DNA from: an uncultured Ruminococcus sp. | Lineage (GTDB): Bacteria; Bacillota; Clostridia; Lachnospirales; Lachnospiraceae | Assembly (NCBI GenBank): GCA_934359255.1 | Contig: CAKRLG010000022.1 | Location: 1 to 37,210, forward strand | Length of the DNA: 37,210 nucleotides | Direction of reading: 5' to 3' | Shown here: positions 8,032 through 30,432 of the stretch, piece by piece | Layout: every line of letters begins with the position of its first letter | Numbering within the stretch: the stretch's first letter is position 1 | Translations under genes and position numbers: made by a program | Notes under the pieces: generated by a model | Seen by the model: only the letters and a program-made list of their open reading frames with translations | Databases searched by the model: none | What the model was told of the DNA's origin: nothing

Positions 8032-9684
8032 ATGGCAGAAAACAGTGTTATTATTTCGGCTGAAGAAGAAGCAAAACTTTTGAAACCGATCAATGAATAT
8101 GTGGAAAAGATCCAGAAAAAAATCGATGTGTTACGTGTAGACGGATCTGATAAAGTGAATGATCTGAAAAACCAGATCGCTATCGCAAAAGAGAACAAGA
8201 ACTTATCCAAAGTCCAGAAAGATAAGATCATTGCAAACAGCAAAAAAGAGCTGGAAAGTGCGAAAAAAGTAGAAGCAGCCAACAAAGAAGAAATCAAAAA
8301 GCTGATCGCAGAAGCTGAGGACTATCTGGCTAAACATTACAAAAAAGATTACTACGATGTAGTAAACAACAGCTGCAAGGCTGCAAAAGCAGCAGAAAAC
8401 AGCAGATACGAAAAAATCAAAGCAGATCTGAAGAGCGAGCATCAGAAAAAGATTGCTTCTCTGAAAGATGCAGAAGAGATCAAGGCTGAGAAATATGTGT
8501 TTAAAAATAAATTGTTTGATGCACAGATGGCTCACGAATCAAAGATCCAGGAGATCAAAGACAGAAGACATGATGCATACATGCATAAATATCATCTGAT
8601 CGATCTGCTGAGAACTTCCAAATTCACCTTCCTTCAGCAGAGAGAACAGAAACTGGAAAATTACAGATATTCCTTCAATTTGTCCCAGTTCCTGTACAAA
8701 AACGGTCTGTATATCGTAATCATCCTGATCTTCATCGCACTGTGTATTATCACACCTGTTGTGAAAAACACACAGCTGCTGACAGTTACCAACATTCTGA
8801 ACATCTTACAGCAGGCATCCCCGCGTATGTTCCTTGCACTTGGTGTTGCCGGTCTGATCCTGTTAACAGGTACCGACCTTTCTGTAGGACGTATGGTTGG
8901 TATGGGTATGGTTACAGCAACCATTATCATGCATAACGGAATCAATACAGGTGCCGTATTCGGACATGTATTTGATTTCTCCACCATGCCTTCCACAGTG
9001 AAAGCACTGTTCGCACTGTTAATGTGTGTGATCTTTACAACTGTATTTTCAATGATCGCCGGATTCTTCATGGCAAGATTCAAGATGCATCCGTTTATCT
9101 CTACCATGGCTAACATGCTGATCATCTTCGGTCTGGTTACTTATGCTACCAAGGGTGTATCTTTCGGTGCAATTGATTCTGCGATCCCGAACACCTTCAT
9201 CCCGCAGATCGGCAAATTCCCGACCATCATTCTGTGGGCAGTTGCAGCAGTTATCATTGTATGGTTTATCTGGAACAAAACAACATTCGGTAAAAACCTG
9301 TATGCGGTAGGTGGAAACCCGGAAGCAGCAGCAGTATCCGGTATCTCTGTATTCAAAGTAACTATGGGAGCATTTATTCTGGCAGGTATCCTGTACGGAT
9401 TTGGTTCCTGGTTGGAATGTAACCGTATGGTTGGTTCCGGTAGTGCAGCTTATGGACAGGGATGGGATATGGATGCCATCGCAGCCTGCGTAGTTGGTGG
9501 TGTATCCTTTACCGGTGGTATCGGTAAGATCTCCGGAGTAGTAACCGGTGTACTGATCTTTACCTCCCTGACATACTCCCTGACGATTCTGGGTATTGAT
9601 ACAAACCTTCAGTTTATCTTTGAAGGTATCATCATCCTGGCAGCCGTAACACTTGACTGTCTGAAGTATGTACAGAAAAAATAA
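8032..9684 (+). CDS. mglC: galactose/methyl galactoside ABC transporter permease with long N-terminal coiled coil
   Basis: A 550-residue protein whose C-terminal 330 residues are a standard MglC permease: GVAGLILLTGTDLSVGR, FGKNLYAVGGNPEAAAVSG, AIAACVVGGVSFTGGIG, and a final TLDCLKYVQKK as in the family. The first membrane helix starts near residue 226. Residues 1 to about 215 are an extra cytoplasmic region, very rich in Lys/Glu/Ala with heptad-like spacing, that the usual 336-residue MglC lacks; it is probably a long coiled coil. The ATG at 8032 is preceded at 9 nt by AGGAGGG. The in-frame TTG at 8026 is too close to that site. The role of the extension is unknown. Confidence 0.93.
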   Translation: MAENSVIISAEEEAKLLKPINEYVEKIQKKIDVLRVDGSDKVNDLKNQIAIAKENKNLSKVQKDKIIANSKKELESAKKVEAANKEEIKKLIAEAEDYLAKHYKKDYYDVVNNSCKAAKAAENSRYEKIKADLKSEHQKKIASLKDAEEIKAEKYVFKNKLFDAQMAHESKIQEIKDRRHDAYMHKYHLIDLLRTSKFTFLQQREQKLENYRYSFNLSQFLYKNGLYIVIILIFIALCIITPVVKNTQLLTVTNILNILQQASPRMFLALGVAGLILLTGTDLSVGRMVGMGMVTATIIMHNGINTGAVFGHVFDFSTMPSTVKALFALLMCVIFTTVFSMIAGFFMARFKMHPFISTMANMLIIFGLVTYATKGVSFGAIDSAIPNTFIPQIGKFPTIILWAVAAVIIVWFIWNKTTFGKNLYAVGGNPEAAAVSGISVFKVTMGAFILAGILYGFGSWLECNRMVGSGSAAYGQGWDMDAIAACVVGGVSFTGGIGKISGVVTGVLIFTSLTYSLTILGIDTNLQFIFEGIIILAAVTLDCLKYVQKK

Positions 9685-19320: not shown

Positions 19321-19416
19321 GTCGGAGATAACAAGAGAAAAATCAGAAAAACTGCAGGAGTCAGATAATGGAAGAAAGTATTCGGTCAGATTTCGGGCAG
19401 TATTGGAGGAAAAAAC

Positions 19417-20808
19417 GTGGAAACAAATACAAAAAAGAAGATAGGTCTTCTGGGATGTATCGGAACGGGAATCGGTGCGATCATCGGATCCGGGATTTTC
19501 GGCTCCCTGCCTACCGTAATCAATGATATCGGAACCGGTATCGTGCTGGCATTGCTGGCAACCATCGTGTACACACTTGCAAAGACGATTCCGAATGTTT
19601 ACCTTTCATCGGTAACACCGGCGTCTGGAAGCTTTTTTATCGCACCGACAAAACTGATCCATCCGGCGGTCGGTGTGTTTATGGCAGCACAGAATCTGCT
19701 GCAGCCGGTATTGATTTCAGTATTTGCCGTGCTGTTCGGAGATTATTTTGTGGCGCTGTTCCCGGCGCTGGAAGGATATAAAACGCTGATCAGCATTGTG
19801 ATTCTGCTGATCTATACGGGAATCGCATGGCAGGGCAATCATACCTTTGCGTTTGTCAATAATATCATGGTAGTAGTATTGATGGTGGCTATGGGCTGTT
19901 ATATTTTTGTCGGTATGCCAAGCATTGATACCTCCAGACTGACACTGGGCGAAATCTTCAATCCGGGCGTGAAACTGACCAGCTTTGCGGCAGCAGTCGG
20001 TGTGCTGGCATCTTCGCTGTCCGGTGGAAGCGCGGTTTCCCAGATCGCAGATGATGTAAAGAATCCGAACCGGAACATTCCACTGGCATTACTCCTGTCC
20101 CCAACGATTGTTGCATTTATCTATATCGGTATGGGTATTGTTACCATCGGCTGCATGCCGGCAGGAGAACTGACCACACTTTCAGAGGTGGGAAAAATAT
20201 TCCTGCCTTCCGGTCTTCTGACATTTTTTATCGTAGGAGGTCCGCTGTTCGGTGTTCTGACTTCAATGGTTCCAGTTATTATGTTAACCTGCGCCCAGAT
20301 TCAGGCGGCGGCAGATAATGATCTGTTTCCGGCTTTTGTCGGAAAGAAAAATAAGAATGGAGTATCACCGGTGATTCTTTGCTTCGTTATGCTCTTTTCT
20401 ATCTGCTGTGTGGCGACCGGATCCAGTTTTGGAGTGTTAATGACTGTATTTTCTTTCGTCAATGCACTGTCGGATATCGCTCTTTGTCTGGTACCGTTCT
20501 TCCTGAAAAAGAAATATCCGCATGCCTGCAATCATTCTACCTTCAAGATGGCCATCGGTCTGGTATATGCACTGTCAGCCTTTGCGTTTGTAGTCGCAGC
20601 CTATCTGGCATATGCGATGATCAGTACGCTGGGAATGACCGTATGGCTGATGATCCTTGGTGCAATTGTACTGTTTGTGATCTATATTCTGATCCGTATC
20701 TCTTATCTGAAGAAACACGGCCGGGATCTGATCGCAGAACTGAAACAACCATATGAGCCATGGGAAGCCCGCGAGCGTGAGTGCAAATCGATGGATGAAG
20801 GAAAATGA
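19417..20808 (+). CDS. APC family amino acid permease
   Basis: A 463-residue membrane transporter of the amino acid-polyamine-organocation superfamily with about twelve helices. The N-terminal motif GCIGTGIGAIIGSGIFGSLP (residues 10-29) is the unwound helix 1 that holds the substrate; AQIADDVKNPNRNIPLALL-like sequence follows helix 6. The start is a GTG at 19417 after GGAGGAAAAAAC. It lies 96 bp after the ferredoxin gene and is probably in the same transcript, suggesting that it imports or exchanges the flavoenzyme's substrate. The last 628 bp are present again, diverged, at 29805-30432 on the far side of the CRISPR locus. Confidence 0.9.
   Translation: METNTKKKIGLLGCIGTGIGAIIGSGIFGSLPTVINDIGTGIVLALLATIVYTLAKTIPNVYLSSVTPASGSFFIAPTKLIHPAVGVFMAAQNLLQPVLISVFAVLFGDYFVALFPALEGYKTLISIVILLIYTGIAWQGNHTFAFVNNIMVVVLMVAMGCYIFVGMPSIDTSRLTLGEIFNPGVKLTSFAAAVGVLASSLSGGSAVSQIADDVKNPNRNIPLALLLSPTIVAFIYIGMGIVTIGCMPAGELTTLSEVGKIFLPSGLLTFFIVGGPLFGVLTSMVPVIMLTCAQIQAAADNDLFPAFVGKKNKNGVSPVILCFVMLFSICCVATGSSFGVLMTVFSFVNALSDIALCLVPFFLKKKYPHACNHSTFKMAIGLVYALSAFAFVVAAYLAYAMISTLGMTVWLMILGAIVLFVIYILIRISYLKKHGRDLIAELKQPYEPWEARERECKSMDEGK
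20181..20808 (+). repeat. 628-bp direct repeat, left copy (3' end of permease)
   Basis: This segment aligns without a gap to 29805-30432 (constant offset 9624). The first 69 bp are identical; afterwards the copies differ at roughly 10-20 % of sites, mostly synonymous. The two copies bracket the whole CRISPR-Cas locus. The left copy is part of an intact gene and the right copy is a fragment. Confidence 0.95.
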
Positions 20809-20832
20809 TATACTATTGATTATAGATGATAT

Positions 20833-20881
20833 AAAAAGTGCGTAAGCTTGGTGAGAACAATCCGGGGCTTACGCACTTTTT
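20833..20881. terminator. strong bidirectional terminator
   Basis: AAAAAGTGCGTAAGC (20833-20847) and GCTTACGCACTTTTT (20867-20881) form a perfect 15-bp stem ending in T-runs on both strands. It ends the permease operon from the left and would also end the minus-strand CreR-like RNA coming from the right. Confidence 0.92.
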
Positions 20882-20919
20882 ATGTATTGCTTTTTGAGAT
20901 GTATTGGGAAAGCAATGAA

Positions 20920-21008
20920 AAAAATATTCCAATATGGGACTATTAAAGGTATTTTGCAGGTGTTAAAAACTGCTTCAAATTTACATTCCAAAATGTACGT
21001 AAAATATT
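20920..21008 (-). ncRNA. candidate CreR/CreA-like guide RNA (degenerate repeat, pseudo-spacer, degenerate repeat)
   Basis: Read on the minus strand. The upstream pseudo-repeat (21008-20979) matches the CRISPR repeat at 16 of its last 17 positions (ACATTTTGGAATGTAAA against ACATATTGGAATGTAAA) and then has T, as repeat 4 of the array does. A 29-nt pseudo-spacer (20978-20950) follows, beginning TTGAAGCAGTTTTTAA. The downstream pseudo-repeat (20949-20921) keeps TTAATAG and CATATTGGAAT of the real repeat (19 of 29 positions). A minus-strand promoter lies directly upstream and a strong hairpin terminator at 20833-20881, giving an RNA of about 165 nt. The pseudo-spacer start matches the cas6 promoter at 14 of 16 positions next to CCA. 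Known CreR/CreA RNAs guide Cascade with such partial matches to repress promoters without cleavage. Confidence 0.8.
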
Positions 21009-21034
21009 ATAATGAAATACAGGCGAAAAGTAAA
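21006..21034 (-). promoter_or_regulatory. promoter of the CreR-like RNA
   Basis: On the minus strand TTTACT (21029-21034) and a perfect TATAAT (21006-21011) are separated by exactly 17 bp. The predicted start near 20999 places the well-conserved 3' half of the upstream pseudo-repeat at the very 5' end of the RNA. Confidence 0.65.
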
Positions 21035-21064
21035 TGAGAAAAATAAATGCAAAATTAAATTAAT

Positions 21065-21095
21065 CCATTGGAACAGTTTTTAAAAATGTTATAGT
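21065..21095 (+). promoter_or_regulatory. cas operon promoter overlapping the CreR-like target site
   Basis: TTGGAA (21068-21073) and TATAGT (21090-21095) are 16 bp apart, 23 bp before the cas6 start codon. The stretch 21068-21083 (TTGGAACAGTTTTTAA) matches the first 16 nt of the pseudo-spacer except at positions 4 and 6, and the three bases before it (21065-21067) are CCA, a functional I-B PAM in related clostridia. Cascade bound here would cover the -35 box. Confidence 0.7.
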
Positions 21096-21117
21096 GGGAT
21101 CAGAAGGAGGGATTGAT

Positions 21118-21840
21118 ATGACAGAGCTAAAATTAGAGTTTCTGTTAGAAGAACCGGAAATCCCGGCAGAGGTGGATCGTTTGTTACTAAGTTTTTTAAA
21201 GGCATCTGTAGAAAAATATTCTCCGGAACTTTTCGAAAAACTTTATACAAAAAAGCAATCCGTCATGAAAACATATTGCTGGTCATGCTATCTGCCGGGA
21301 GCACGATTCGCAGCAGACAAGATTTATCTGAAAGAAAATCGGTTTATGGTAACATTTTCCGATGCGGACATGGGAGAACTATTTGAATTCTTTAATGCAT
21401 TTCAGTTAATGCGGAATATAGAGTATCCCATGGGAGGAAACTCGATGAAACTGCGTGAAGTGAAAGCAAAAAAGATTCCGGAGATTAAAGAATCGGAGCT
21501 TATCATAAAAATGCAGAGTTCCTTACTGGCAAGAAAACATGATCCGGAAAATAATACGGATATCTATTATACCTGTGAGGATCCTGAGCTTTCGGATACA
21601 TTAAAAGACAATCTGAAGTTCTTCTTGAACAAGATCGGATGGGACGAAGATGTGGATTGTTTTTCGATTGTTCCGGTGAAAGGAAAAAAGATTGTTGCGA
21701 AAGTATGGGGAAGACCAACAAATGCCAGTATTGGGATATACAAACTACAGGGAACGCCCCGGCTTTTAGATTTCCTGTACTCTGCAGGACTTGGAAGCCG
21801 CAGATCGGAAGGCCATGGGAAATGGGAAATCGTCTGGTAG
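21118..21840 (+). CDS. cas6: CRISPR endoribonuclease Cas6
   Basis: A 240-residue RNase that cuts the CRISPR precursor RNA inside each repeat, leaving an 8-nt 5' handle (ATGTAAAG or ATGTAAAT here). The N-terminal ferredoxin-like fold begins ELKLEFLLEEPEIPAEV, and the C-terminal Gly-rich signature of the family is FLYSAGLGSRRSEGHGKWEIVW. It is the first gene of the cas operon, with AGGAGGG 6 nt before the ATG at 21118; the longer upstream frame has no ribosome site. It should also process the CreR-like RNA at 20920-21008. Confidence 0.92.
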   Translation: MTELKLEFLLEEPEIPAEVDRLLLSFLKASVEKYSPELFEKLYTKKQSVMKTYCWSCYLPGARFAADKIYLKENRFMVTFSDADMGELFEFFNAFQLMRNIEYPMGGNSMKLREVKAKKIPEIKESELIIKMQSSLLARKHDPENNTDIYYTCEDPELSDTLKDNLKFFLNKIGWDEDVDCFSIVPVKGKKIVAKVWGRPTNASIGIYKLQGTPRLLDFLYSAGLGSRRSEGHGKWEIVW

Positions 21841-21856
21841 AGAGAGGTGATATTTT

Positions 21857-23536
21857 ATGGAAAAATATGCAATTACGCCAGGTGATTTTCTGAAAAACGC
21901 CGGAATCGTCGGGATGAAATATATACTGGATTGCGCAAAGGCGCAGGAAGGTGTTGACTTTGGCATATCGGAAGACGGTCAGGAGATGTGGCTGAACTGC
22001 GAATTTATTCAAAATGCGGACTGGACCAGTCTGTATTTCCAGGCATGTGTGCAAAATTTTGGAAGGTTTACTGTTTACCAGGGCGTAATGGAGAAAATCA
22101 AGTGCTGTATCGGGAAAATTCAGAATGAAAAATGGAATCCGGGAAAGAACGAAAAGGATGATTTGAAATTTATCAATGACAAACTGCTCTCGAACAGTTA
22201 CCAGGCCGGCTTTGAAAATATCAAAGATCAGATCGAACATCCGGAAGTTTATATAACACTGAAAAAAGAAAAACTGATTGATAAAATGACAGCGGAAGAA
22301 TTACTGGAAAGGCTTTCGAAATTACAGGTGTTTCTGGAGCAGGAGAAATGCAAAGAGACGTTTATTATGAAAAGTGTAGTCTACAACTATATCAATCGTT
22401 TCTGGGATGGAAAAAGTTTTCTGCTTCGCTCGAATGCAAAAAAAGATATGAGGGAACAGTTTGAAAAAGATTTTTCAGAACCATTCCGAAAATACTTTAT
22501 GACAGATCATACAAAAGCAAAGGATCTGTGTATTGACTGTGGAGAACCTGTAACCACAAAAGAGAAAGTATCCATCACATTTATGAAGGAAGTCGGGGAC
22601 GATTTTACAAGAAAACGGTCTGCGTTCTGGAATTGTAATGTGGATGCGTTCCTGTGTCCGGTCTGTACGTTTCTGTATGCAGCAAGTCCGCTTGGGTTCC
22701 GACTGTTTGCCAATAAATTTGTGTTTGTCAATAATAACAGTGATATGTTCACTCTGCTGGCAGCAAATTCCAAAAACAGGAAAAGCAGTCTGGAAGGAGA
22801 AAAAGAAGAGAATCAGAGATATTCCCAGTGGTTTGCGGAAACTCTGAATATCATATTGAATGAGAAAAGACAGGAACTTTCCAATATTCAGGTGATCCTG
22901 CGTGGAACCGGGGATAAGGACAGATATAAACTTTCTATTATCAACAAGGATATACTGAATATCCTGAAAAGGGAAGATGTAGAAAAAGCATTGAAAAATC
23001 TTGGTCAGTATCCGTTCATAAAGATCAGAAATGATTTTGTAAATGTGCATGAACAGGCTGTTATGAACCTGTTGGGCCATCAGAATCAGTATATTTTGTT
23101 AGATTCCCTGCTGAGAGAAGCCATTGCAGGGAATGCTGCATCAAACTTTCATATACATTGGGTATATGAGATTCAGAAGGGAACAGAGATCAGTTACAAA
23201 AAAGAAGAAGAGAAGGAGGTTCTTATGTATTGCATCAGTATGAAAAAGAGCGGTTCGGAATTACGAAAAGCGATCATGACCGCAAAAAAAGACACGACCG
23301 GAGATAGTCTGCGTGGTATCGAGTATCAGCTGCTTAATGCGCTGTCGGTAAAAAATACAGAGAAATTTATGGATATCGTTGCGAGACTGTACAGTTCCTA
23401 TGGATCGGAAAAACTCCTGATACCGAATGGGATGATTCGGATGTTACAGGACAAAGAAAAATTTTCGGAGTATGGATACGCATTTGTTTTAGGACTGATT
23501 GGATGTTATGAAGGAAAGAAAGAGGTAGAACAATGA
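21857..23536 (+). CDS. cas8b: Cas8, Cst1-type CXXC-CXXC large subunit of type I-B Cascade
   Basis: A 559-residue protein, expected to be the large subunit that recognises the PAM within Cascade. Its hallmark is two CxxC pairs, C225-I-D-C228 and C267-P-V-C270, likely binding zinc, with the conserved RKRSAFWNCNVDAFLCPVCTF context of the Cst1 family. Most of the rest is poorly conserved, as is normal for Cas8. It starts 16 bp after cas6 and overlaps cas7 by 4 bp. Confidence 0.9.
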   Translation: MEKYAITPGDFLKNAGIVGMKYILDCAKAQEGVDFGISEDGQEMWLNCEFIQNADWTSLYFQACVQNFGRFTVYQGVMEKIKCCIGKIQNEKWNPGKNEKDDLKFINDKLLSNSYQAGFENIKDQIEHPEVYITLKKEKLIDKMTAEELLERLSKLQVFLEQEKCKETFIMKSVVYNYINRFWDGKSFLLRSNAKKDMREQFEKDFSEPFRKYFMTDHTKAKDLCIDCGEPVTTKEKVSITFMKEVGDDFTRKRSAFWNCNVDAFLCPVCTFLYAASPLGFRLFANKFVFVNNNSDMFTLLAANSKNRKSSLEGEKEENQRYSQWFAETLNIILNEKRQELSNIQVILRGTGDKDRYKLSIINKDILNILKREDVEKALKNLGQYPFIKIRNDFVNVHEQAVMNLLGHQNQYILLDSLLREAIAGNAASNFHIHWVYEIQKGTEISYKKEEEKEVLMYCISMKKSGSELRKAIMTAKKDTTGDSLRGIEYQLLNALSVKNTEKFMDIVARLYSSYGSEKLLIPNGMIRMLQDKEKFSEYGYAFVLGLIGCYEGKKEVEQ

Positions 23537-24408
23537 GAAGAGAAGGATTGACAGTAACTATGGTTTTTCTTGCGGAAAGTGCCAATTACGGAGAGGGAAT
23601 CGGAAATATTTCTACATTAAAGAAAATGTCAAGAGGAAACCACGAGCAGTATTCGTATATTTCCAGGCAGGCGATGCGTTATAACATTGTCCGGCAGGCA
23701 AACTGGGATCAGACTCCGGTGGACGGAAAAAGCGGTGTGGTTCAGTTTGCACCGTCTGCAACGATTGCGGAATATCCGGAAATCGATCTGTTCGGCTATA
23801 TGAAGACAGCGGCAAAGGATGGCGATCAGAAAGGCGGAGCGTCTACAAGAAGCGCTGTAGTGAGACTGAGTAATGCTATTGCACTGGAGCCGTTTTTGGG
23901 TAATCTGGAGTTCTTAACTAACATGGGACTGGCAGCAAGAGGAAAGCTGGAGAATGGAATTGCACAGAGCGAAATTCAGCGATCATTTTATACTTATACC
24001 ATAACGGTCGATCTGGACCGGGTAGGGATTGACGGAGAAGTGCAGATCACAGGAGAAGAAAAAGCAGATCGTGTGAAAACACTTCTGGATACCGTGCAGT
24101 ATTTGTATCGGGATATCAAAGGTAGAAGGGAAAATCTGAGCCCATTGTTTGCGATCGGGGGAAGATATGAACGGAGAAATCCATTTTTTGAAAACAGGAT
24201 CCGGATAGAAAATGATCAGATCAATGTAGAAACTCTGGCGGAACTGTTAGAGGACGACGCGATCCGCACCCACACATTTACCGGTGTCGTAACAGGAACT
24301 TTTGACAATGAAAATGAGATCCGGGGAAAATTATCCGGAGAATCCGTAGGTGCAGCATTCAGACATTTAAAAGAGGAAGTGGAACAGTATTATGGAGAAA
24401 GCAATTAG
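23533..24408 (+). CDS. cas7: Cas7 (Cst2/DevR family) backbone subunit
   Basis: A 291-residue RRM-fold protein that forms the backbone of Cascade along the crRNA. The N-terminus has the family pattern LTVTMVFLAESANYGEG and SYISRQAMRYNIVRQ; central segments RSAVVRLSNAIALEPFLGN and DRVKTLLDTVQYLYRDIKGRRENLSPLF follow. The ATG at 23533 overlaps the cas8 stop, and the end overlaps cas5 by 17 bp, consistent with coupled translation of the Cascade subunits. Confidence 0.93.
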   Translation: MRREGLTVTMVFLAESANYGEGIGNISTLKKMSRGNHEQYSYISRQAMRYNIVRQANWDQTPVDGKSGVVQFAPSATIAEYPEIDLFGYMKTAAKDGDQKGGASTRSAVVRLSNAIALEPFLGNLEFLTNMGLAARGKLENGIAQSEIQRSFYTYTITVDLDRVGIDGEVQITGEEKADRVKTLLDTVQYLYRDIKGRRENLSPLFAIGGRYERRNPFFENRIRIENDQINVETLAELLEDDAIRTHTFTGVVTGTFDNENEIRGKLSGESVGAAFRHLKEEVEQYYGESN

Positions 24409-25105
24409 AGTTCAGTGTTTTCAGAACCTGGTAAATTATCGAAAACCGAGCAGCTTTATCATAAAAGAGACATTCCCGCTTCCTCCGTATTCTACGGTGC
24501 TTGGAATGATCCATGCGGCCTGCGGATACCAGGAATTTCATCCGATGAAACTGTGTATTCAGGGAACAAACAGCGGAATGGTGTCGGAACTGTATACCAG
24601 ATATTCCTTTTCTTCTGGTACGAAGTATGAAGAGGGAAGACATCAGCTGTGTGTGGATGGAAAATATGGTGTGTTTAAGGGGATCGCGAATGTAGAACTG
24701 GTTTGTGATAATCACATGGTGATTCATATTATTCCGGCAGAGGAAGATTTTGCACATGTATATCAATCTCTTCTATATCCGGGCAGGTATTTATCCCTGG
24801 GAAGATATGAGGATCTCCTGGATATCGAACGGGTTGACATTGTGAAAATTCATCAGGAAGAGGAAGTAGATCTCAAGCGGGATATGTACATACCGGTAGC
24901 GATGGCAGAGACACTGGGGATTGAGAAAAGTCGTATGACGGTGTACCATCTGACAAAGGAATATGAGATTACCAAACAGGGTCTGCGGCGGTGGAAAAAG
25001 GAAAATGGAAGAGTCAATGCTTTTTATTATCCTGCAGGAAATACACTGGGGCAGGGTGCCTACGTGGACGATTTCGAGGAAGATGCAGCGTTAGTGTTCT
25101 GTTAA
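24392..25105 (+). CDS. cas5: Cas5 (Cas5t) subunit
   Basis: A 237-residue RAMP protein that caps the 5' handle of the crRNA in Cascade. The N-terminal signature is RKPSSFIIKETFPLPPYSTVLGMIHAACG, followed by a Gly/Arg-containing region (LLYPGRYLSLGRYEDLLDIE) typical of Cas5. It starts inside the end of cas7. The C-terminus is short, with no added domain. Confidence 0.92.
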   Translation: MEKAIRVQCFQNLVNYRKPSSFIIKETFPLPPYSTVLGMIHAACGYQEFHPMKLCIQGTNSGMVSELYTRYSFSSGTKYEEGRHQLCVDGKYGVFKGIANVELVCDNHMVIHIIPAEEDFAHVYQSLLYPGRYLSLGRYEDLLDIERVDIVKIHQEEEVDLKRDMYIPVAMAETLGIEKSRMTVYHLTKEYEITKQGLRRWKKENGRVNAFYYPAGNTLGQGAYVDDFEEDAALVFC

Positions 25106-25127
25106 AGAAGGTCAGAAAGGCGTGGGA

Positions 25128-27374
25128 ATGAAATACTATGCAAAATCGAAGAAAAAGGGATTATCCGATAAAGAGCGGGGGAAACAGATAAAAGAACCGG
25201 AAGAAGAACAAAAAACACTGAATAGCCATCAGGAAGATATTGTGCGGTGTGCTGAAGCGTTTTTTGAAGAATATGGCCGGTATTTTTCTGAAAAAGAGAA
25301 ACGGCTGGTCATAGAAGCCTGCCGCATTCATGATTGGGGGAAGGCGAATCTGGTCTTTCAGGTAATGATAAATCCGGAACTTGCCGGAGAACGGAAGTTA
25401 AATGTGAAATCTATCAGTCAGATCCCTCATGGACATCTTAGCGCAGTTACTCTGTCACAAAACGAATTCTTTGCAATGGACGATAGTTTTACGAAAGATG
25501 ATTTTGGGGCTTTTGTCACGGCAGTCTATCATCACCATACGAGAAAAGACCAGGAAGACAGTTCGGAGCTTCGTACATATGGAAAGAAATATTATCTGGA
25601 AGAGATCAGTGATTATCTTGGACAGACCAGAACAAAACTGTACTGCAGCAACTTGAACCAGCTTCTGTTTCACAATAACGGATATAGTGGGAAGTTCCTA
25701 TGTGATCCTGCAGTCTGGAATGAATATCTTCTCGTAAAAGGATTGCTGAATAAGTTTGATTATACGGTTAGTGCCGGATATGAGAATGCGGAACTGGCAT
25801 GTGATATCAGGGAAAAAAGGCTGAAAAAAGAAGTGGAGAGTTTTCTGGAAGGAAAAGATTTACGGCCTGCTCAACAGTTCATGAAAGAGCATATGGATGA
25901 TAGCCTTGTTGTTATTGCGCCCACCGGATCCGGAAAAACAGAAGCCGCTTTGTTATGGCTTGACGGGGAGAAAGGATTTTACACGCTGCCTTTGAAAGTT
26001 TCTTCCAATGCAATTTATTCCAGAATAAAAAACGGATATGGTTATGAACATGCGGCGATTTTGCATTCGGACAGCATGGCGATGTATCTGAAAGAAAATC
26101 CGGGATCTGCCTGGGAAAAACAGGAACAGGCAAAGTTGTTAGCGAATCCTGTTACTGTGTGTACGATTGACCAGTTGTTTACGTTTGTTTACAGGGCGCT
26201 GGGGACAGAGATCTTTGCAGCAACTTTGAAGTATTCCAAGCTGATCATAGATGAAATACAGTCTTATGATCCAAGAAGTATTGCTACGATCTTATACGGT
26301 CTGAAAACCATCCAGCAAATGGGCGGCAGATATGCGATTATTACGGCAACTTTTCCACCTGTACTGAAAGATTTTATGGAGCAATACGGATTGGCAGATC
26401 ATTGTTTGTTTGCAGACTTTACAGAAAATCCGGATATTCTCATTCGTCATAAGGTAAGCATCCAGTATTCGGAAATGTATCTGGAAGAGATTGCAAAGCA
26501 GGGGAAAACCAAAAAAGTACTGGTGATTTGTAATACCGTTTCCAGGGCGCAGGAGGTTTATGAAAAACTGCGGGAAAGGAACGATTCTGTGTGGCTGTTA
26601 CATTCCCGTTTTATTCGCAGAGACCGTAATTTACTGGAACAAAAGATTATGGAGTTTTCAGAATCGGATGAAGCGGGGATCTGGGTCACCACGCAGATCG
26701 TTGAAGCCAGTCTGGATATCGATTTTGATATTCTGCACACGGAAATGTGTACAGCAGACAGCTTGTTGCAGCGTATGGGAAGATGTAACCGGAAGGGAAG
26801 AAGGATTCCTGAACTTTCCAATATTTTTGTATATGATAACAAAAATGGAAGCGGAAGTATTTACGAGGAGAACTTGTATCAGCGATCGCTGGAAAAACTG
26901 AAAAAGTATGAAGATATCCTTTTTTCAGAAAAACAGAAGACGAAATATATGAATGAAGTGTATCGGACAGAAGCGATACGGAATACAGAATATTACAGGA
27001 AAATTCAAGACTGTATGGAGAAATTCTCGGAGATCCATCCGGCGGAATATACTCTATCGGAAGCGAAGGTGCGCGATATCAAGAGCATTACGGTCATTCC
27101 GGATACCATCTATGAAGAAAATCAAGAACTGTTTGAAGAAGTAGAAGACAGATATCTATCAAAAGAGAGAAAGCAGGAGATTCGGACAAAGTTGCAGGAT
27201 TTAACCATGGGAATCAATCTGAGGACCTGTTTTGGACATCCGGATGGAATAGATAAGGCAGCAATTGGCTCGACAGACATCCATCGAACACAGTTTGTTT
27301 ATGAGTTTGATTGTGAAACACTGCAAGGACGAGGTCTTTTGCTTGGAGAGAAGGCAGATAGTATCTTTTTATAG
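25128..27374 (+). CDS. cas3: Cas3 helicase-nuclease (HD plus helicase fusion)
   Basis: A 748-residue effector that unwinds and degrades DNA marked by Cascade. The N-terminal HD nuclease domain has H68-D69-W-G-K, the His of PHGHLSA and YHHHTRKD. The SF2 helicase has Walker A APTGSGKT (264-271), the DEIQ box (375-378), TATFPP (motif III) and QRMGRCNRKGR (548-558, motif VI). All key motifs are present, so it looks active. The ATG at 25128 is preferred (AAAGG 7 nt upstream) over a GTG at 25122. Confidence 0.96.
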   Translation: MKYYAKSKKKGLSDKERGKQIKEPEEEQKTLNSHQEDIVRCAEAFFEEYGRYFSEKEKRLVIEACRIHDWGKANLVFQVMINPELAGERKLNVKSISQIPHGHLSAVTLSQNEFFAMDDSFTKDDFGAFVTAVYHHHTRKDQEDSSELRTYGKKYYLEEISDYLGQTRTKLYCSNLNQLLFHNNGYSGKFLCDPAVWNEYLLVKGLLNKFDYTVSAGYENAELACDIREKRLKKEVESFLEGKDLRPAQQFMKEHMDDSLVVIAPTGSGKTEAALLWLDGEKGFYTLPLKVSSNAIYSRIKNGYGYEHAAILHSDSMAMYLKENPGSAWEKQEQAKLLANPVTVCTIDQLFTFVYRALGTEIFAATLKYSKLIIDEIQSYDPRSIATILYGLKTIQQMGGRYAIITATFPPVLKDFMEQYGLADHCLFADFTENPDILIRHKVSIQYSEMYLEEIAKQGKTKKVLVICNTVSRAQEVYEKLRERNDSVWLLHSRFIRRDRNLLEQKIMEFSESDEAGIWVTTQIVEASLDIDFDILHTEMCTADSLLQRMGRCNRKGRRIPELSNIFVYDNKNGSGSIYEENLYQRSLEKLKKYEDILFSEKQKTKYMNEVYRTEAIRNTEYYRKIQDCMEKFSEIHPAEYTLSEAKVRDIKSITVIPDTIYEENQELFEEVEDRYLSKERKQEIRTKLQDLTMGINLRTCFGHPDGIDKAAIGSTDIHRTQFVYEFDCETLQGRGLLLGEKADSIFL

Positions 27375-27384
27375 GAGGTACGAC

Positions 27385-27879
27385 GTGAAAGAAAATATAA
27401 CTGGTATGATGGTATATTATTACTTCGTCTGCAAACGAAAACTCTGGTACTTCTGTCATGAAATCACAATGGAGACGGAGAACGAAGATGTGTTACTCGG
27501 AAAACTGTTGGACGAGAGCAGTTACAAAAAGAATGACAAACACATTTCTATTGATCAGATAATCAACATTGATTTTATGAAAGAATTCGGAGAGCTGCAT
27601 GAGGTGAAAAAGAGTAAGTCTGTAGAAGAAGCAGGGATTTGGCAGATGAAATACTATCTGTATTACCTGCAGCAGCGTGGTGTGACCGGAATGAAAGGAA
27701 AAATCGATTACCCATTATTAAAAAAGACAATGAGTGTGGAGCTTACAGATGAAGACTGCGGGGAAATAGAAAAAATCATTTGTGAAATTACACAGATAAA
27801 AAAGAGGAATATACCACCGGATGATTGTAATAAGAAAATATGCAAGAAATGTGCGTATTATGATTTGTGCTTTATATAA
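27385..27879 (+). CDS. cas4: Cas4 nuclease (RecB-like, Fe-S)
   Basis: A 164-residue adaptation nuclease that helps select PAM-flanked spacers. It has Cys16 (YFVCKRKLWYF) and the C-terminal triplet C153-K-K-C156-A-Y-Y-D-L-C162 for a [4Fe-4S] cluster, the EVK motif and the Gln-Tyr motif of RecB-type nucleases (WQMKYYLYYLQ). The start is a GTG at 27385, 7 nt after AGGAGG (27372-27377); the frame is open upstream within cas3, but that is overlap. Confidence 0.93.
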   Translation: MKENITGMMVYYYFVCKRKLWYFCHEITMETENEDVLLGKLLDESSYKKNDKHISIDQIINIDFMKEFGELHEVKKSKSVEEAGIWQMKYYLYYLQQRGVTGMKGKIDYPLLKKTMSVELTDEDCGEIEKIICEITQIKKRNIPPDDCNKKICKKCAYYDLCFI

Positions 27880-27894
27880 TACGAGGTGAGTGAT

Positions 27895-28887
27895 ATGAAA
27901 CAAAGTTTTTATGTTTATAATAACGGGGACTTAAAACGAAAAGATAACACACTTCAGTTTACGAATCACGATGGAGAAAAGAGAGATATACCGGTTGAAC
28001 GGATTTCTGATATTTATGTGATGTCGGAAATGTCTTTCAATACAGCTTTTATCAATTATATTTCACAATATGGGATTCCGATGCATTTTTTCAATTACTA
28101 TAATTTTTATACGGGAAGTTATTATCCGAGGGAAACGTTGCTGGCAGGGAGATTGCTGGTAAGACAGGTTGAACATTACACGGATTATGAGAAAAGGATT
28201 GTGTTGGCGAGAAAATTTATCGAGGCTGCGGCGGATAATATTTATCGTAATCTCAGATATTATAATGGAAGAGGGAAAGATGTTTCTGTTTATATGAAAG
28301 AAGTGGATTCGTTTCGAAAACAGATTGGCAGTACGACTACAATCGAATCGTTGATGGGTGTGGAAGGTAATATCCGAAAACAATATTATGCTGCGTGGAA
28401 TATTATCATTAATCAGGAAATATCGTTTGAAAAGCGTGTGATGCATCCCCCGGATAATATGATCAATTCATTGATCTCTTTCGTAAATACGCTGATCTAT
28501 ACCAAGGTGCTGGGAGAACTCTACCGTACTCAGCTAAATCCCACCATTAGTTACCTGCATGAACCGGGGGAGAGAAGATTTTCTTTAAGTCTTGATCTTG
28601 CAGAAGTGTTTAAGCCACTGATTGGTGACCGGCTGATTTTTTCCCTGTTGAATCGGAATCAGATCACGGAAAACAGTTTTACGAAAGAACTGAATTTTCT
28701 TCATCTGAAAAAAGATGCCTCCAAACTTATCGTGTCGGAACTGGAAAGTCGGCTCAAGAAAACGGTGATGCATAAAGAACTGGGAAGACAGGTCTCTTAT
28801 CAGTACCTGATTCGTCTGGAAGCGTATAAATTAATTAAGTATCTGATTGGCGAAAAAGAGTATGAGGGATTTCGAATATGGTGGTGA
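27895..28887 (+). CDS. cas1: Cas1 integrase
   Basis: A 330-residue integrase subunit that inserts new spacers at the leader end. Metal ligands are visible: E157 in MGVEGNIRKQYY, H222 in YLHEPGERRFS and D234 in LDLAEVFKP. The N-terminal beta domain (SFYVYNNGDLKRKDNTL) and the family's GIPMHFFNYYNFYTGSYYPRE stretch are intact. The ATG at 27895 follows GAGGTGAG; a GTG at 27886 overlaps that site and is less likely. Confidence 0.96.
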   Translation: MKQSFYVYNNGDLKRKDNTLQFTNHDGEKRDIPVERISDIYVMSEMSFNTAFINYISQYGIPMHFFNYYNFYTGSYYPRETLLAGRLLVRQVEHYTDYEKRIVLARKFIEAAADNIYRNLRYYNGRGKDVSVYMKEVDSFRKQIGSTTTIESLMGVEGNIRKQYYAAWNIIINQEISFEKRVMHPPDNMINSLISFVNTLIYTKVLGELYRTQLNPTISYLHEPGERRFSLSLDLAEVFKPLIGDRLIFSLLNRNQITENSFTKELNFLHLKKDASKLIVSELESRLKKTVMHKELGRQVSYQYLIRLEAYKLIKYLIGEKEYEGFRIWW

Positions 28888-28890
28888 AGT

Positions 28891-29169
28891 ATGTATATCG
28901 TATTAGTATATGATGTAAGTCAGGAAGACCATGGAACTAAGCGATGGTCAAAAATATTCAAGACATGTAAAAGATATTTAACACACATCCAGAACTCTGT
29001 ATTTGAAGGGGAGATAAGCAGAGCGCAGCTGGCAAGCCTGCAGCAGGAACTGAAACAGTATATCGATCCGGAGTTGGATTCTGTTATTCTCTTCAAATCA
29101 CGTCAGGAAAAATGGATGGACAAGGAATTCTGGGGCAGAAAAGATGACCTGACCAGTTTCATCTTGTGA
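28891..29169 (+). CDS. cas2: Cas2
   Basis: A 92-residue adaptation protein of the ferredoxin-like fold that bridges two Cas1 dimers. It begins MYIVLVYDVSQED, with Asp8 at the usual position, and ends FWGRKDDLTSFIL. It starts 3 bp after the cas1 stop and is the last gene before the CRISPR leader. Confidence 0.96.
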   Translation: MYIVLVYDVSQEDHGTKRWSKIFKTCKRYLTHIQNSVFEGEISRAQLASLQQELKQYIDPELDSVILFKSRQEKWMDKEFWGRKDDLTSFIL

Positions 29170-29350
29170 TTGTCGACCTGAGATAGAGATAAAATTACGA
29201 GAGGTCGACAAACGTGAAAAACATAAGCAAAATAGTGCTTCCGGTGAACCGTGTTATATCGAAATAAATAAAAAGATAAAAAAATACAATACCATGGTCG
29301 ACAAAATATGGTATAATATGGAAGAATTAATCGGTGGTTCAGAGGAGCGG
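29170..29350 (+). promoter_or_regulatory. CRISPR leader with extended -10 promoter and GGTCGACAA motifs
   Basis: This is the AT-rich stretch between cas2 and repeat 1. An extended -10 box TGGTATAAT (29309-29317) ends 33 bp before the first repeat; no good -35 is present. The motif GGTCGACAA appears three times: inverted at 29170-29178, direct at 29203-29211 and direct at 29296-29304. The first two form a perfect 10-bp inverted repeat (TTGTCGACCT/AGGTCGACAA). They may be binding sites for adaptation proteins. Confidence 0.75.
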
Positions 29351-29804
29351 GTATTAATAGAAACATATTGGAATGTAAAGCACCATTGAACGTTTTATCC
29401 GCCCTGTCTCGCTTCCCGTATTAATAGAAACATATTGGAATGTAAAGAGAAATCCATGCCGGGCGGTTAAAAGCATTAAATGTATTAATAGAAACATATT
29501 GGAATGTAAAGAGTATAAAATGGACTACGTTTTCGCAATGGAAGAGGTATTAATAGAAACATATTGGAATGTAAATAAAGAAAAGTTGCTTGAAGTACAG
29601 AAAGTAGCTGAGTATTAATAGAAACATATTGGAATGTAAAGCAAATAAGGTCAACTAATTTCTGTCCGACTTTTTTGTATTAATAGAAACATATTGGAAT
29701 GTAAAGGTTGATAGATTTCGAAGAACAGTGGAAGGAGCAGCAGTATTAATAGAAACATATTGGAATGTAAAGGTGCTTTCCGCTGGTGGTTCCGGCGCTC
29801 TATA
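29351..29804 (+). CRISPR. type I-B CRISPR array, 7 repeats, truncated at the trailer end
   Basis: Seven identical 29-nt repeats start at 29351, 29418, 29482, 29547, 29612, 29677 and 29743 (first half GTATTAATAGAAAC, second half ATATTGGAATGTAAA). The thirtieth base is G in six and T in the fourth (29576), so the repeat unit is probably 30 nt. The six complete spacers are 34-37 nt. The repeat end resembles that of C. difficile I-B repeats. No degenerate terminal repeat is seen: after repeat 7 comes about 33 nt of unique sequence (29772-29804) and then the permease fragment. The leader side is the left, next to cas2. Confidence 0.97.
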
Positions 29805-30432
29805 TTCAGAGGTGGGAAAAATATTCCTGCCTTCCGGTCTTCTGACATTTTTTATCGTAGGAGGTCCGCTGTTTGGTGTTCTGACTTCGATGGCTCCGGT
29901 TATTATGTTAACCTGTGCGCAGATCCAGGCGGCAGCAGACAATGATCTGTTCCCTGCATTTGTAGCGAAAAAGAATAAAAACGGTGTCTCACCGGTGATT
30001 CTTTGTTTCGTTATGCTGTTTTCGATTGCATGTGTTGCCACCGGTTCCAGTTTTGGTGTGCTGATGACGGTATTTTCCTTTGTCAATGCCCTGTCTGATA
30101 TCGTGCTTTGTATGGTGCCGTTCTTCCTGAAGAAGAAATATCCTCATGCATGTAATCACTCTACCTTTAAGATGGCGATCGGACTGGTGTATGCGCTGTC
30201 TGCCTTTGCTTTTATCGTTGCGGCTTATCTGGCCTATGCGATGATCAGTACGCTTGGTATGACGGTATGGCTGATGATCATGGGTGCGGTTGTGCTGTTT
30301 GTGATCTACATTCTGATCCGTATCGCTTATCTGAAGAAACATGGTCGGGATCTGATCGCAGAACTGAAACAACCATATGAGCCATGGGAAGCCCGTGAGC
30401 GCGAGTGCAAAGCGCTGGATGAAGTAAAATAG
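29805..30432 (+). pseudogene. 3' fragment of a second APC permease
   Basis: It encodes the last 208 residues of a permease nearly identical in protein to residues 256-463 of the one at 19417 (from EVGKIFLPSGLLTFF to the stop), with about a dozen conservative changes. The first 1.1 kb that should hold the start and helices 1-6 is missing; the frame runs backwards into the CRISPR array, so translation from an internal start is unlikely to give a functional transporter. Many synonymous differences show that this is an old paralogue or foreign allele, not a fresh copy. Confidence 0.93.

What the first reader, a model, noticed from the sequence alone, without database searches (positions are those of the whole stretch)
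20920..21095. CreR/CreA-like guide RNA that probably directs Cascade to repress its own cas operon
Seen in sequence: two degenerate copies of the CRISPR repeat on the minus strand between the permease terminator and cas6. The first is 16/17 identical over the repeat 3' half including the 8-nt handle; the second keeps TTAATAG and CATATTGGAAT. They flank a 29-nt pseudo-spacer and have their own promoter (TTTACT-17-TATAAT) and terminator. Counting from the repeat boundary, pseudo-spacer positions 1-16 match the cas6 promoter (21068-21083) at 14 positions, mismatching at 4 and 6, with 10 consecutive matches, and the 3 bases before the match are CCA. Established: CreR/CreA RNAs of type I-B systems use partial matches of this kind to repress promoters without Cas3 cleavage, and CCA is a working PAM in clostridial I-B. 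Inference: this RNA sets Cas levels and would derepress cas when crRNA is scarce or an anti-CRISPR blocks Cascade.
Basis: partly seen in the sequence, partly recalled or inferred. Interest (0 to 1): 0.95.

Follow-up and report, generated by a model that had tools for sequence, protein, structure and literature searches.

The report
RNA guide restraining its own CRISPR
Beside its CRISPR immune genes this bacterium carries a tiny degenerate CRISPR unit whose guide sequence matches the promoter of those same genes, and it is predicted to steer the CRISPR complex there to hold back its own production; related bacteria keep the pairing with different letters, which makes this a well-supported new case of a kind of switch that is already known.

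Summary
Upstream of a type I-B cas operon, on the opposite strand, two degenerate CRISPR repeats (psiR1 20979-21008, psiR2 20920-20949) flank a 29-nt pseudo-spacer. Its first 16 nt match the cas6 promoter (21068-21083) at 14 positions, behind CCA. Relatives decide the matter. Of 30 loci (28 Cas8 relatives, the window, nearest genome G001), 17 carry such a unit. In 16 of 17 the guide matches its own cas6 upstream region at 13-16 of 16 positions; 15 of these 16 have CC at -3,-2, which was not asked for. Guides differ between species, and related loci change guide and target together. Of 24 mismatches in positions 1-16, 15 fall at 6 and 12, which a Cascade guide does not read. The system's own spacers suggest the same CCN PAM. 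This is a CreR-type cas-repressing RNA, a new member of a known kind. Two corrections: by the competition model abundant crRNA, not scarce crRNA, lifts repression; and this strain has a seed mismatch (position 4) and a promoter change that G001 lacks, so repression may be weaker here. In passing: 13 of 24 relatives carry a sense-strand half-repeat between cas5 and cas3, a possible Cas6 cut site.

The parts
20979..21008 (-). psiR1, upstream pseudo-repeat; keeps the repeat's last ~18 nt (hairpin TACATT-TTGG-AATGTA and 8-nt handle ATGTAAAT), first 12 nt decayed
20950..20978 (-). 29-nt pseudo-spacer (guide), beginning TTGAAGCAGTTTTTAA; the window's array spacers are 34-37 nt with a 30-nt repeat
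20920..20949 (-). psiR2, downstream pseudo-repeat; keeps TTAATAG...CATATTGGAAT up to about the predicted Cas6 cut, the end decayed
21006..21034 (-). predicted CreR promoter, TTTACT-17-TATAAT; its -10 box overlaps the first 3 nt of psiR1
20831..20883 (-). 17-pair hairpin: predicted terminator shared by permease (+) and CreR (-)
   Evidence: the consensus scan does not report it
21065..21067 (+). CCA, PAM of the promoter target
21068..21083 (+). target of the guide in the cas6 promoter, 14/16 (mismatches 4 and 6; 15/16 in G001)
21068..21095 (+). predicted cas6 promoter, TTGGAA-16-TATAGT (TTGAAA-17-TATAGT in G001)
21118..21840 (+). cas6 (TIGR01877), endoribonuclease
21857..23536 (+). cas8b1/Cst1 (TIGR01908)
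23533..24408 (+). cas7/Cst2/DevR (TIGR02585)
24392..25105 (+). cas5 (TIGR02593; TIGR01895 below its cut-off)
25122..27374 (+). cas3 (TIGR01587, TIGR01596)
27265..27879 (+). cas4 (TIGR00372); ORF as listed, true start probably further in
27886..28887 (+). cas1 (TIGR03641)
28891..29169 (+). cas2 (TIGR01573)
29351..29771 (+). CRISPR array, 7 repeats, 6 spacers

Best explanation
The element is a CreR-type mini-CRISPR whose guide matches its own cas6 promoter behind a CCA PAM, and it is predicted to direct the type I-B Cascade there to repress the cas operon. Inferred steps: a minus-strand RNA starts at about 20999, is cut by Cas6 in both pseudo-repeats, giving about 8 + 29 + 22 nt, and is loaded into Cascade. 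Cascade then binds the -35 region at 21068-21083. Pairing over only about 16 nt holds it there without Cas3 cutting, so cas transcription falls. Array crRNAs compete for the same Cascade, and anti-CRISPR proteins disable it; either would lift the block. Shown by sequence: the two complementary half-repeats, the PAM, the match, its covariation in relatives and the mismatch spacing. Not shown: transcript, processing, repression.
For: Complete type I-B operon, all eight cas ORFs open and 98.5-100% identical to G001. 17 of 30 loci carry psiR1 upstream of cas6 on the opposite strand (picked by eye from the scan list before guides were compared); two more units appear in extra genomes, L060 and L065. 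Own-guide best match 13-16 of 16 in 16 of 17, and 15 of those 16 have CC at -3,-2 although PAM was not used in picking the match. Guides of the other loci, re-optimised over the same regions, average 10.8-11.8 in those 16; the own guide beats every other guide in 10 and ties the best other in 6 (L030, L031, L033, L034, window, G001), four of which share their guide with another locus of the set. Of 24 mismatches in positions 1-16, 9 are at 6 and 6 at 12; none at 3, 5, 7-10, 13, 14. Related loci change guide and target together: L043/L060 at 5, 7, 8 with 6 (and 19) changed in the guide only; L034/L035 at 8 and 17 with 6 and 18 changed in the guide only and 12 in the target only. PAM from array spacers matched to phages: CC at -3,-2 in 6 of 8 alignments of at least 90% identity, 16 of 23 in all. 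Repeat decay is complementary: over 15 loci psiR1 keeps positions 13-16 and 19-29, psiR2 keeps 4-10, 13-16 and 19-23, fitting the 8-nt 5' handle and 22-nt 3' handle measured for CreA (abstract and passages of PMC8501985). One exact site in the G001 genome.
Against: No expression or binding data. The window has a seed mismatch at position 4 that G001 does not have; in a haloarchaeal CreTA, promoter changes at position 4 or 10 ended repression (passages). The 29-nt guide is longer than the 26-nt limit for repression without cutting reported for fully matched guides in another I-B system (passages), so safety here must rest on the match ending at 16. One of 17 loci (L028) has both pseudo-repeats but no promoter match. 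L041 lacks the CC PAM (TTG). For L022, L033 and L041 the match alone is not clearly beyond shuffles (27, 149 and 19 of 300). Each best match was the best of many sites in an AT-rich region, and 9 of the 24 mismatches in positions 1-16 lie outside 6 and 12. Nine relatives with ample upstream sequence show no such unit, so it is dispensable.
Confidence: 0.9

Rival explanations
1. In this strain the CreR unit is on the way to losing function: the promoter change TTGAAA to TTGGAA and the 1-nt shorter spacer weaken both seed pairing and promoter, so the pairing is a relic.
For: Seed mismatch at position 4 and -35/-10 spacing 16 instead of 17 compared with G001, while the CreR unit itself is identical; only 6 spacers in the array against 84 in G001.
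Against: All cas ORFs intact and 98.5-100% identical to G001; CreR promoter, guide, both psi-repeats and terminator identical to G001; setting position 6 aside, 14 of the 15 other positions still match.
Confidence: 0.2
2. A chance inverted repeat, or an operator for a DNA-binding protein, between two remnants of a dying array; no guide RNA function.
For: The window match alone is reached by 3 of 300 shuffled guides; AT-rich promoters readily give best matches of 10-13 of 16.
Against: CC at -3,-2 in 15 of 16, mismatches concentrated at 6 and 12, covariation in related loci, guide always taken from the exact end of the handle. A protein operator would not be expected to follow the repeat end or the 6-nt spacing.
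Confidence: 0.03
3. CreA-type antitoxin guide: the unit mainly represses a hidden toxin gene, and the cas promoter match is secondary.
For: Same anatomy as creA (two psi-repeats, partial match).
Against: The match lies in the promoter directly ahead of cas6 with 34 nt between target end and cas6 ATG; no other exact site in the G001 genome; in 16 of 17 loci the target lies upstream of cas6.
Confidence: 0.03
4. An ordinary immune mini-array (one spacer taken up by mistake from the host's own promoter), kept as a relic of self-targeting.
For: Such units may well arise this way; spacer flanked by repeats. The guide was not searched against phages.
Against: Matching falls off after position 16-17 in most pairs, guides are often shorter (13-34 nt, 10 of 17 at 21-24) than array spacers, and guide and target change together, which points to continuing selection. 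L035 is the exception that matches over all 20 positions compared.
Confidence: 0.04

Closest known systems
CreR, cas-regulating RNAs from mini-CRISPRs (Liu et al. 2023, Cell Host Microbe; paper not held, recalled; review PMC12737573, passages read)
   Same: Degenerate mini-array by the cas operon, guide partly matches the cas promoter, no toxin gene, predicted Cascade-mediated autorepression.
   Different: Here in Cst-type I-B systems of Lachnospiraceae and related genomes, on the strand opposite to cas6; in window and G001 the match lies on the -35 box itself, whereas in 12 of the 15 other pairs a -35-like hexamer follows it at guide position 17-27.
crRNA-like mini-arrays with spacers matching cas promoters (Shmakov et al. 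2023, NAR 51:8150; not held, recalled; seen as a reference)
   Same: Standalone conserved repeats around a spacer partly complementary to a cas promoter; a systematic survey that may already list these loci.
   Different: Cannot be checked here; paper and supplements not available.
CreA of CreTA (PMC8501985: abstract and passages; PMC9458426: start of abstract and passages)
   Same: Two psi-repeats decayed in complementary halves, 8-nt and 22-nt handles, repression by partial match with PAM.
   Different: CreA represses a toxin promoter; here the target is the cas6 promoter.
Long-form tracrRNA autoregulation of type II-A Cas9 (Workman et al. 2021; seen only as a reference, rest recalled)
   Same: RNA-guided effector repressing its own operon by a short match.
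   Different: Class 2, long-form tracrRNA; unrelated parts.

Membership tests
CreR | crRNA-like unit: spacer flanked by degenerate copies of the cognate repeat | tested here: met
CreR | guide partially matches the promoter of its own cas operon, with the system's PAM | tested here: met
   14/16 behind CCA; CCN suggested by phage protospacers, 6 of 8 good alignments
CreR | guide and promoter conserved as a pair | tested here: met
   16 of 17 loci, covariation
CreR | not coupled to a toxin gene | tested here: met
   34 nt between target and cas6 ATG; one exact site in the G001 genome; no dedicated toxin search was made
CreR | transcribed, Cas6-processed, Cascade-bound | not testable with these tools
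   promoter-like site and terminator hairpin only
CreR | represses cas expression; responds to crRNA level or Acr | not testable with these tools
   none
CreA (CreTA) | guide matches the promoter of a toxin gene (creT/creP) | tested here: not met
   target promoter leads straight into cas6
CreA (CreTA) | two psi-repeats yielding 8-nt and 22-nt handles | tested here: inconclusive
   sequence fits; processing not measured
Rfam RNA families | match above gathering score | tested here: not met
   0 matches in the window

The most novel reading that the evidence does not exclude
In this clade of I-B systems pieces of the CRISPR repeat run two layers of cas control: a CreR guide that silences the promoter, and, in many relatives, a sense-strand half-repeat between cas5 and cas3 where Cas6 would cut the cas mRNA and so set Cascade against Cas3. 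In the window the guide sits on the -35 box itself, so single promoter mutations change promoter strength and repression together, as between this strain and G001.
Probability: 0.35. Interest if true: 0.6.

Novelty: new member of a known kind. Interest (0 to 1): 0.42.

Why it matters
It gives a family of natural guide-promoter pairs that show which bases Cascade seems to read when it represses: positions 1-16 except 6 and 12. That lets the CreR model be tested by comparison as well as at the bench. If it works as predicted, cas dosage in these bacteria is set by competition between one resident guide and the immune crRNAs, and loss of Cascade to an anti-CRISPR would raise cas expression.

Tried and rejected
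Rfam scan: nothing. Plasmid collection for the 309-nt region: nothing. Viral contigs for relatives of Cas8: none confirmed. Viral contigs for the psiR1 core: 15 single hits, not followed; my guess is that chance gives about as many in so large a collection (not computed). Idea that larger arrays go with better CreR matches: too few loci with complete arrays, no claim made. The relatives without a psi-repeat (L038 and others with no usable upstream sequence apart), L028 and L033 were rescanned with a looser model (14 loci); it gave no new unit. The permutation (213 of 225 matches against a permuted mean of 119.3, maximum 159) overstates the effect because each target had been picked to suit its own guide; the re-optimised control is the fair one.

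Dropped before counts: among the 13 of 30 loci without a unit, L029, L038 and L044 have too little upstream sequence and L021 only 178 nt. Near-duplicates G001 and L031 were left out of the permutation, G001 and L041 out of the repeat-decay count, L028 out of the mismatch profile. In one search six loci without a readable array (L022, L028, L031, L032, L033, L043) were compared with a consensus repeat. Positions 19 and 20 are mismatched in 9 of 16 pairs each, so the 12 of 16 at position 18 is not clean evidence of the 6-nt rhythm; I rest it on 6 and 12.

Full report
What is there. The window holds a complete type I-B (Cst-type) operon, cas6-cas8b1-cas7-cas5-cas3-cas4-cas1-cas2 followed by a 7-repeat array. 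Between an amino-acid permease and cas6, on the strand opposite to cas6, lie two degenerate copies of the 30-nt repeat around a 29-nt pseudo-spacer. psiR1 (20979-21008) matches the last 17 nt of the 29-nt core at 16 positions; the best other non-array site in the window reaches 13. psiR2 (20920-20949) keeps the first part of the repeat. A sigma-70-like promoter (TTTACT-17-TATAAT) overlaps the start of psiR1, so the transcript would begin within psiR1, ahead of its hairpin (inferred). A 17-pair hairpin, 20831-20883, shared with the permease, would end it. The first 16 nt after psiR1 match 21068-21083 in the cas6 promoter at 14 positions behind CCA.

Is it more than chance. In the window alone, 3 of 300 dinucleotide-shuffled guides reach 14 of 16 in the same region: suggestive, not decisive. 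I therefore fetched relatives by Cas8: 28 loci from named genomes (12 of the 28 titles say Lachnospiraceae, the others are mostly other Clostridia by title, with odd ones such as Bacteroides and Thermoguttaceae MAGs), plus the nearest whole genome G001, whose Cas8 is 99% identical. Of these 30 loci including the window, 17 have a degenerate repeat upstream of cas6 on the opposite strand (chosen by eye from the best-scoring sites, weakest 13 of 18 in L017). Of the 13 without, L029, L038, L044 and L021 have little or no upstream sequence, and nine (L019, L023, L025, L026, L027, L036, L037, L040, L042) have enough and show none even in a looser search. Among 397 genomes of G001's family, 12 have the Cas8 at E <= 1e-20. 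Eight of these loci were new to the session and scanned: five share DNA with a named locus, L060 (sharing DNA with the cut locus L038) and L065 add units, and L063 (little upstream sequence), L064 and L066 show none.

The guide-promoter pairs. In 16 of the 17 loci the sequence starting exactly after the handle matches its own cas6 upstream region at 13-16 of 16 positions. The PAM was not used in choosing the site, yet 15 of 16 have CC at -3,-2 (CCA 9, CCT 6); L041 has TTG. L028 keeps both pseudo-repeats but has no match. Shuffled guides reach the own score in 0-8 of 300 trials in 13 of the 16, but in 27, 149 and 19 of 300 for L022, L033 and L041. Guides of the other loci, re-optimised over the same regions, average 10.8-11.8; the own guide is best alone in 10 of 16 and tied in 6 (L030, L031, L033, L034, window, G001). 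L030/L031 and window/G001 have identical guides. The guides otherwise differ, so this is not simple sequence conservation. L060 fits too, 15 of 16 behind CCT with the mismatch at 6. L065 has the unit on the same strand as cas6, with the target on the other strand directly upstream, 14 of 16 behind CCA with mismatches at 6 and 12; there the guide probably represses a promoter shared by unit and operon (inference).

The 6-nt rhythm. Over the 16 pairs there are 24 mismatches in positions 1-16; 9 are at position 6 and 6 at 12, then 3 at 11, 2 at 15 and one each at 1, 2, 4 and 16; positions 3, 5, 7-10, 13 and 14 have none. Position 18 is mismatched in 12, but 19 and 20 in 9 each, so the match simply fades there. 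In type I Cascade every sixth guide base is flipped out and unpaired (established from structures; recalled). Related loci show the same: between L043 and L060 guide and target both change at 5, 7 and 8, while 6 and 19 change in the guide only; between L034 and L035 both change at 8 and 17, while 6 and 18 change only in the guide and 12 only in the target. Against this, L030/L031 and window/G001 differ in the target alone (at 15, 18, 20 and at 4, 20). On balance this argues for selection on guide-DNA pairing inside Cascade, not for a protein operator.

The PAM, independently. The G001 array (84 spacers) was compared with the phage collection; 147 records had some match at E up to 1. Twelve of the 40 listed were fetched. 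In one search, 16 of 23 alignments, and 6 of the 8 with at least 90% identity (5 of 7 spacers), have CC at -3,-2 when the repeat is taken as 30 nt; one fetched stretch (L052) gave no alignment. That also supports the first guide position used above. The repeat's own end (AAG/AAT) is not CCN, so neither array nor CreR unit should be targeted.

Decay of the two repeats. Over 15 loci psiR1 keeps repeat positions 13-16 and 19-29 (12-15 of 15) and loses 1-12 (1-10 of 15); psiR2 keeps 4-10, 13-16 and 19-23 (11-15 of 15) and loses 25-30 (1-7 of 15). This is what is needed for an 8-nt 5' handle and a 22-nt 3' handle, as measured for the CreA RNA (PMC8501985, abstract and passages). Guides are 13-34 nt, 10 of 17 of them 21-24, against 34-38 in the G001 array; fully matched guides of 26 nt or less repress without cutting in another I-B system (PMC10551041, passages). 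The window's guide is 29 nt, so the early end of the match would have to prevent cutting.

This strain. The unit is identical in window and G001, but the promoter differs at two places: TTGGAA for TTGAAA (guide position 4) and one A fewer between -35 and -10. In G001 the only mismatch in 1-16 is at 6. In window and G001 the target lies on the -35 box, whereas in 12 of the 15 other pairs a -35-like hexamer follows it at guide position 17-27. Hence a promoter mutation here also alters the operator. Repression in this strain may be weaker than in G001; I cannot tell by how much.

How it most likely works. RNA from the unit is cut by Cas6, joins Cascade and holds it on the cas6 promoter; partial pairing avoids Cas3 attack; cas transcription falls. 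crRNAs compete for Cascade, so many crRNAs or an anti-CRISPR would lift repression. This follows the CreR model as described in PMC12737573 (passages) and one passage of PMC12948488.

Novelty. CreR RNAs are known for type I and V-A systems (I-B, I-E and V-A in Liu et al. 2023, recalled; not held), and a survey of such mini-arrays exists (Shmakov et al. 2023, recalled; not held). The paper searches (listings, several capped at 20) showed no paper on CreR in Lachnospiraceae, and a search with both words among its terms (three of four required) found none, but the two key papers were not readable here and may include such loci. I file this as a new member of a known kind.

Beyond the finding. In 13 of the 24 relatives holding both genes, and in neither window nor G001, a sense-strand half-repeat (TTAATAG..ACAT..TGGAAT, at least 14 of 17) lies between cas5 and cas3, within 30 nt of the cas5 stop in 11 of 13. 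The core pattern has 56 hits in 207 kb of these loci (CreR units and parts of arrays included) against 1 for the reversed pattern. Most are of the psiR2 type, so they look like a Cas6 cut site in the cas mRNA, not a guide (inference). L022 is different: its copy keeps the handle and a second copy follows 66 nt on, like a repeat-spacer-repeat unit. A paper search for such repeats listed three papers, none on this by title or abstract start.

Noticed in passing
L018:13265, L019:13256, L022:13291, L023:13289, L024:13292, L026:13277, L027:11650, L032:12999, L034:4460, L035:13271, L037:13311, L038:2826, L039:13313: Sense-strand half CRISPR repeat between cas5 and cas3 in 13 of 24 relatives with both genes; a possible Cas6 cut site in the cas mRNA. 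L029 has a weaker one (13/17). In L022 a second copy follows 66 nt on. Absent from window and G001 (16-nt gap).
   Followed up: partly
20181-20480 and 29805-30104: The permease 3' half is duplicated (87%) on both sides of the CRISPR-Cas island; G001 has the same arrangement, with about 1.3 kb inserted between array end and the permease remnant (an ORF there looks IS3-like by eye).
   Followed up: partly
19386-29771: Island 97.3% identical to G001 while the matching flank pieces are 79-95%, mostly 84-91%: the island, CreR unit included, may have moved or recombined as a block.
   Followed up: partly
29351-29771: None of the window's 6 spacers is found exactly among the 84 of G001, and the array is far shorter.
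   Followed up: no
L009 array: Many of the phage records matched by this I-B array are Microviridae (single-stranded DNA phages) from animal or human feces, though through a few spacers and often at weak E-values.
   Followed up: no
L028, about 9131-9209: Both pseudo-repeats present but no match to the cas6 promoter: orphan CreR, or a target elsewhere.
   Followed up: partly
L065, about 137-188 nt upstream of cas6: CreR-like unit on the same strand as cas6 with its target on the opposite strand directly upstream, mismatches at 6 and 12.
   Followed up: partly
L033:2-283: A second, unrelated CRISPR-like repeat (GTTAAGAAAAGAAAACCCCGAAAGGGGACGGAAAC) upstream of the operon.
   Followed up: no
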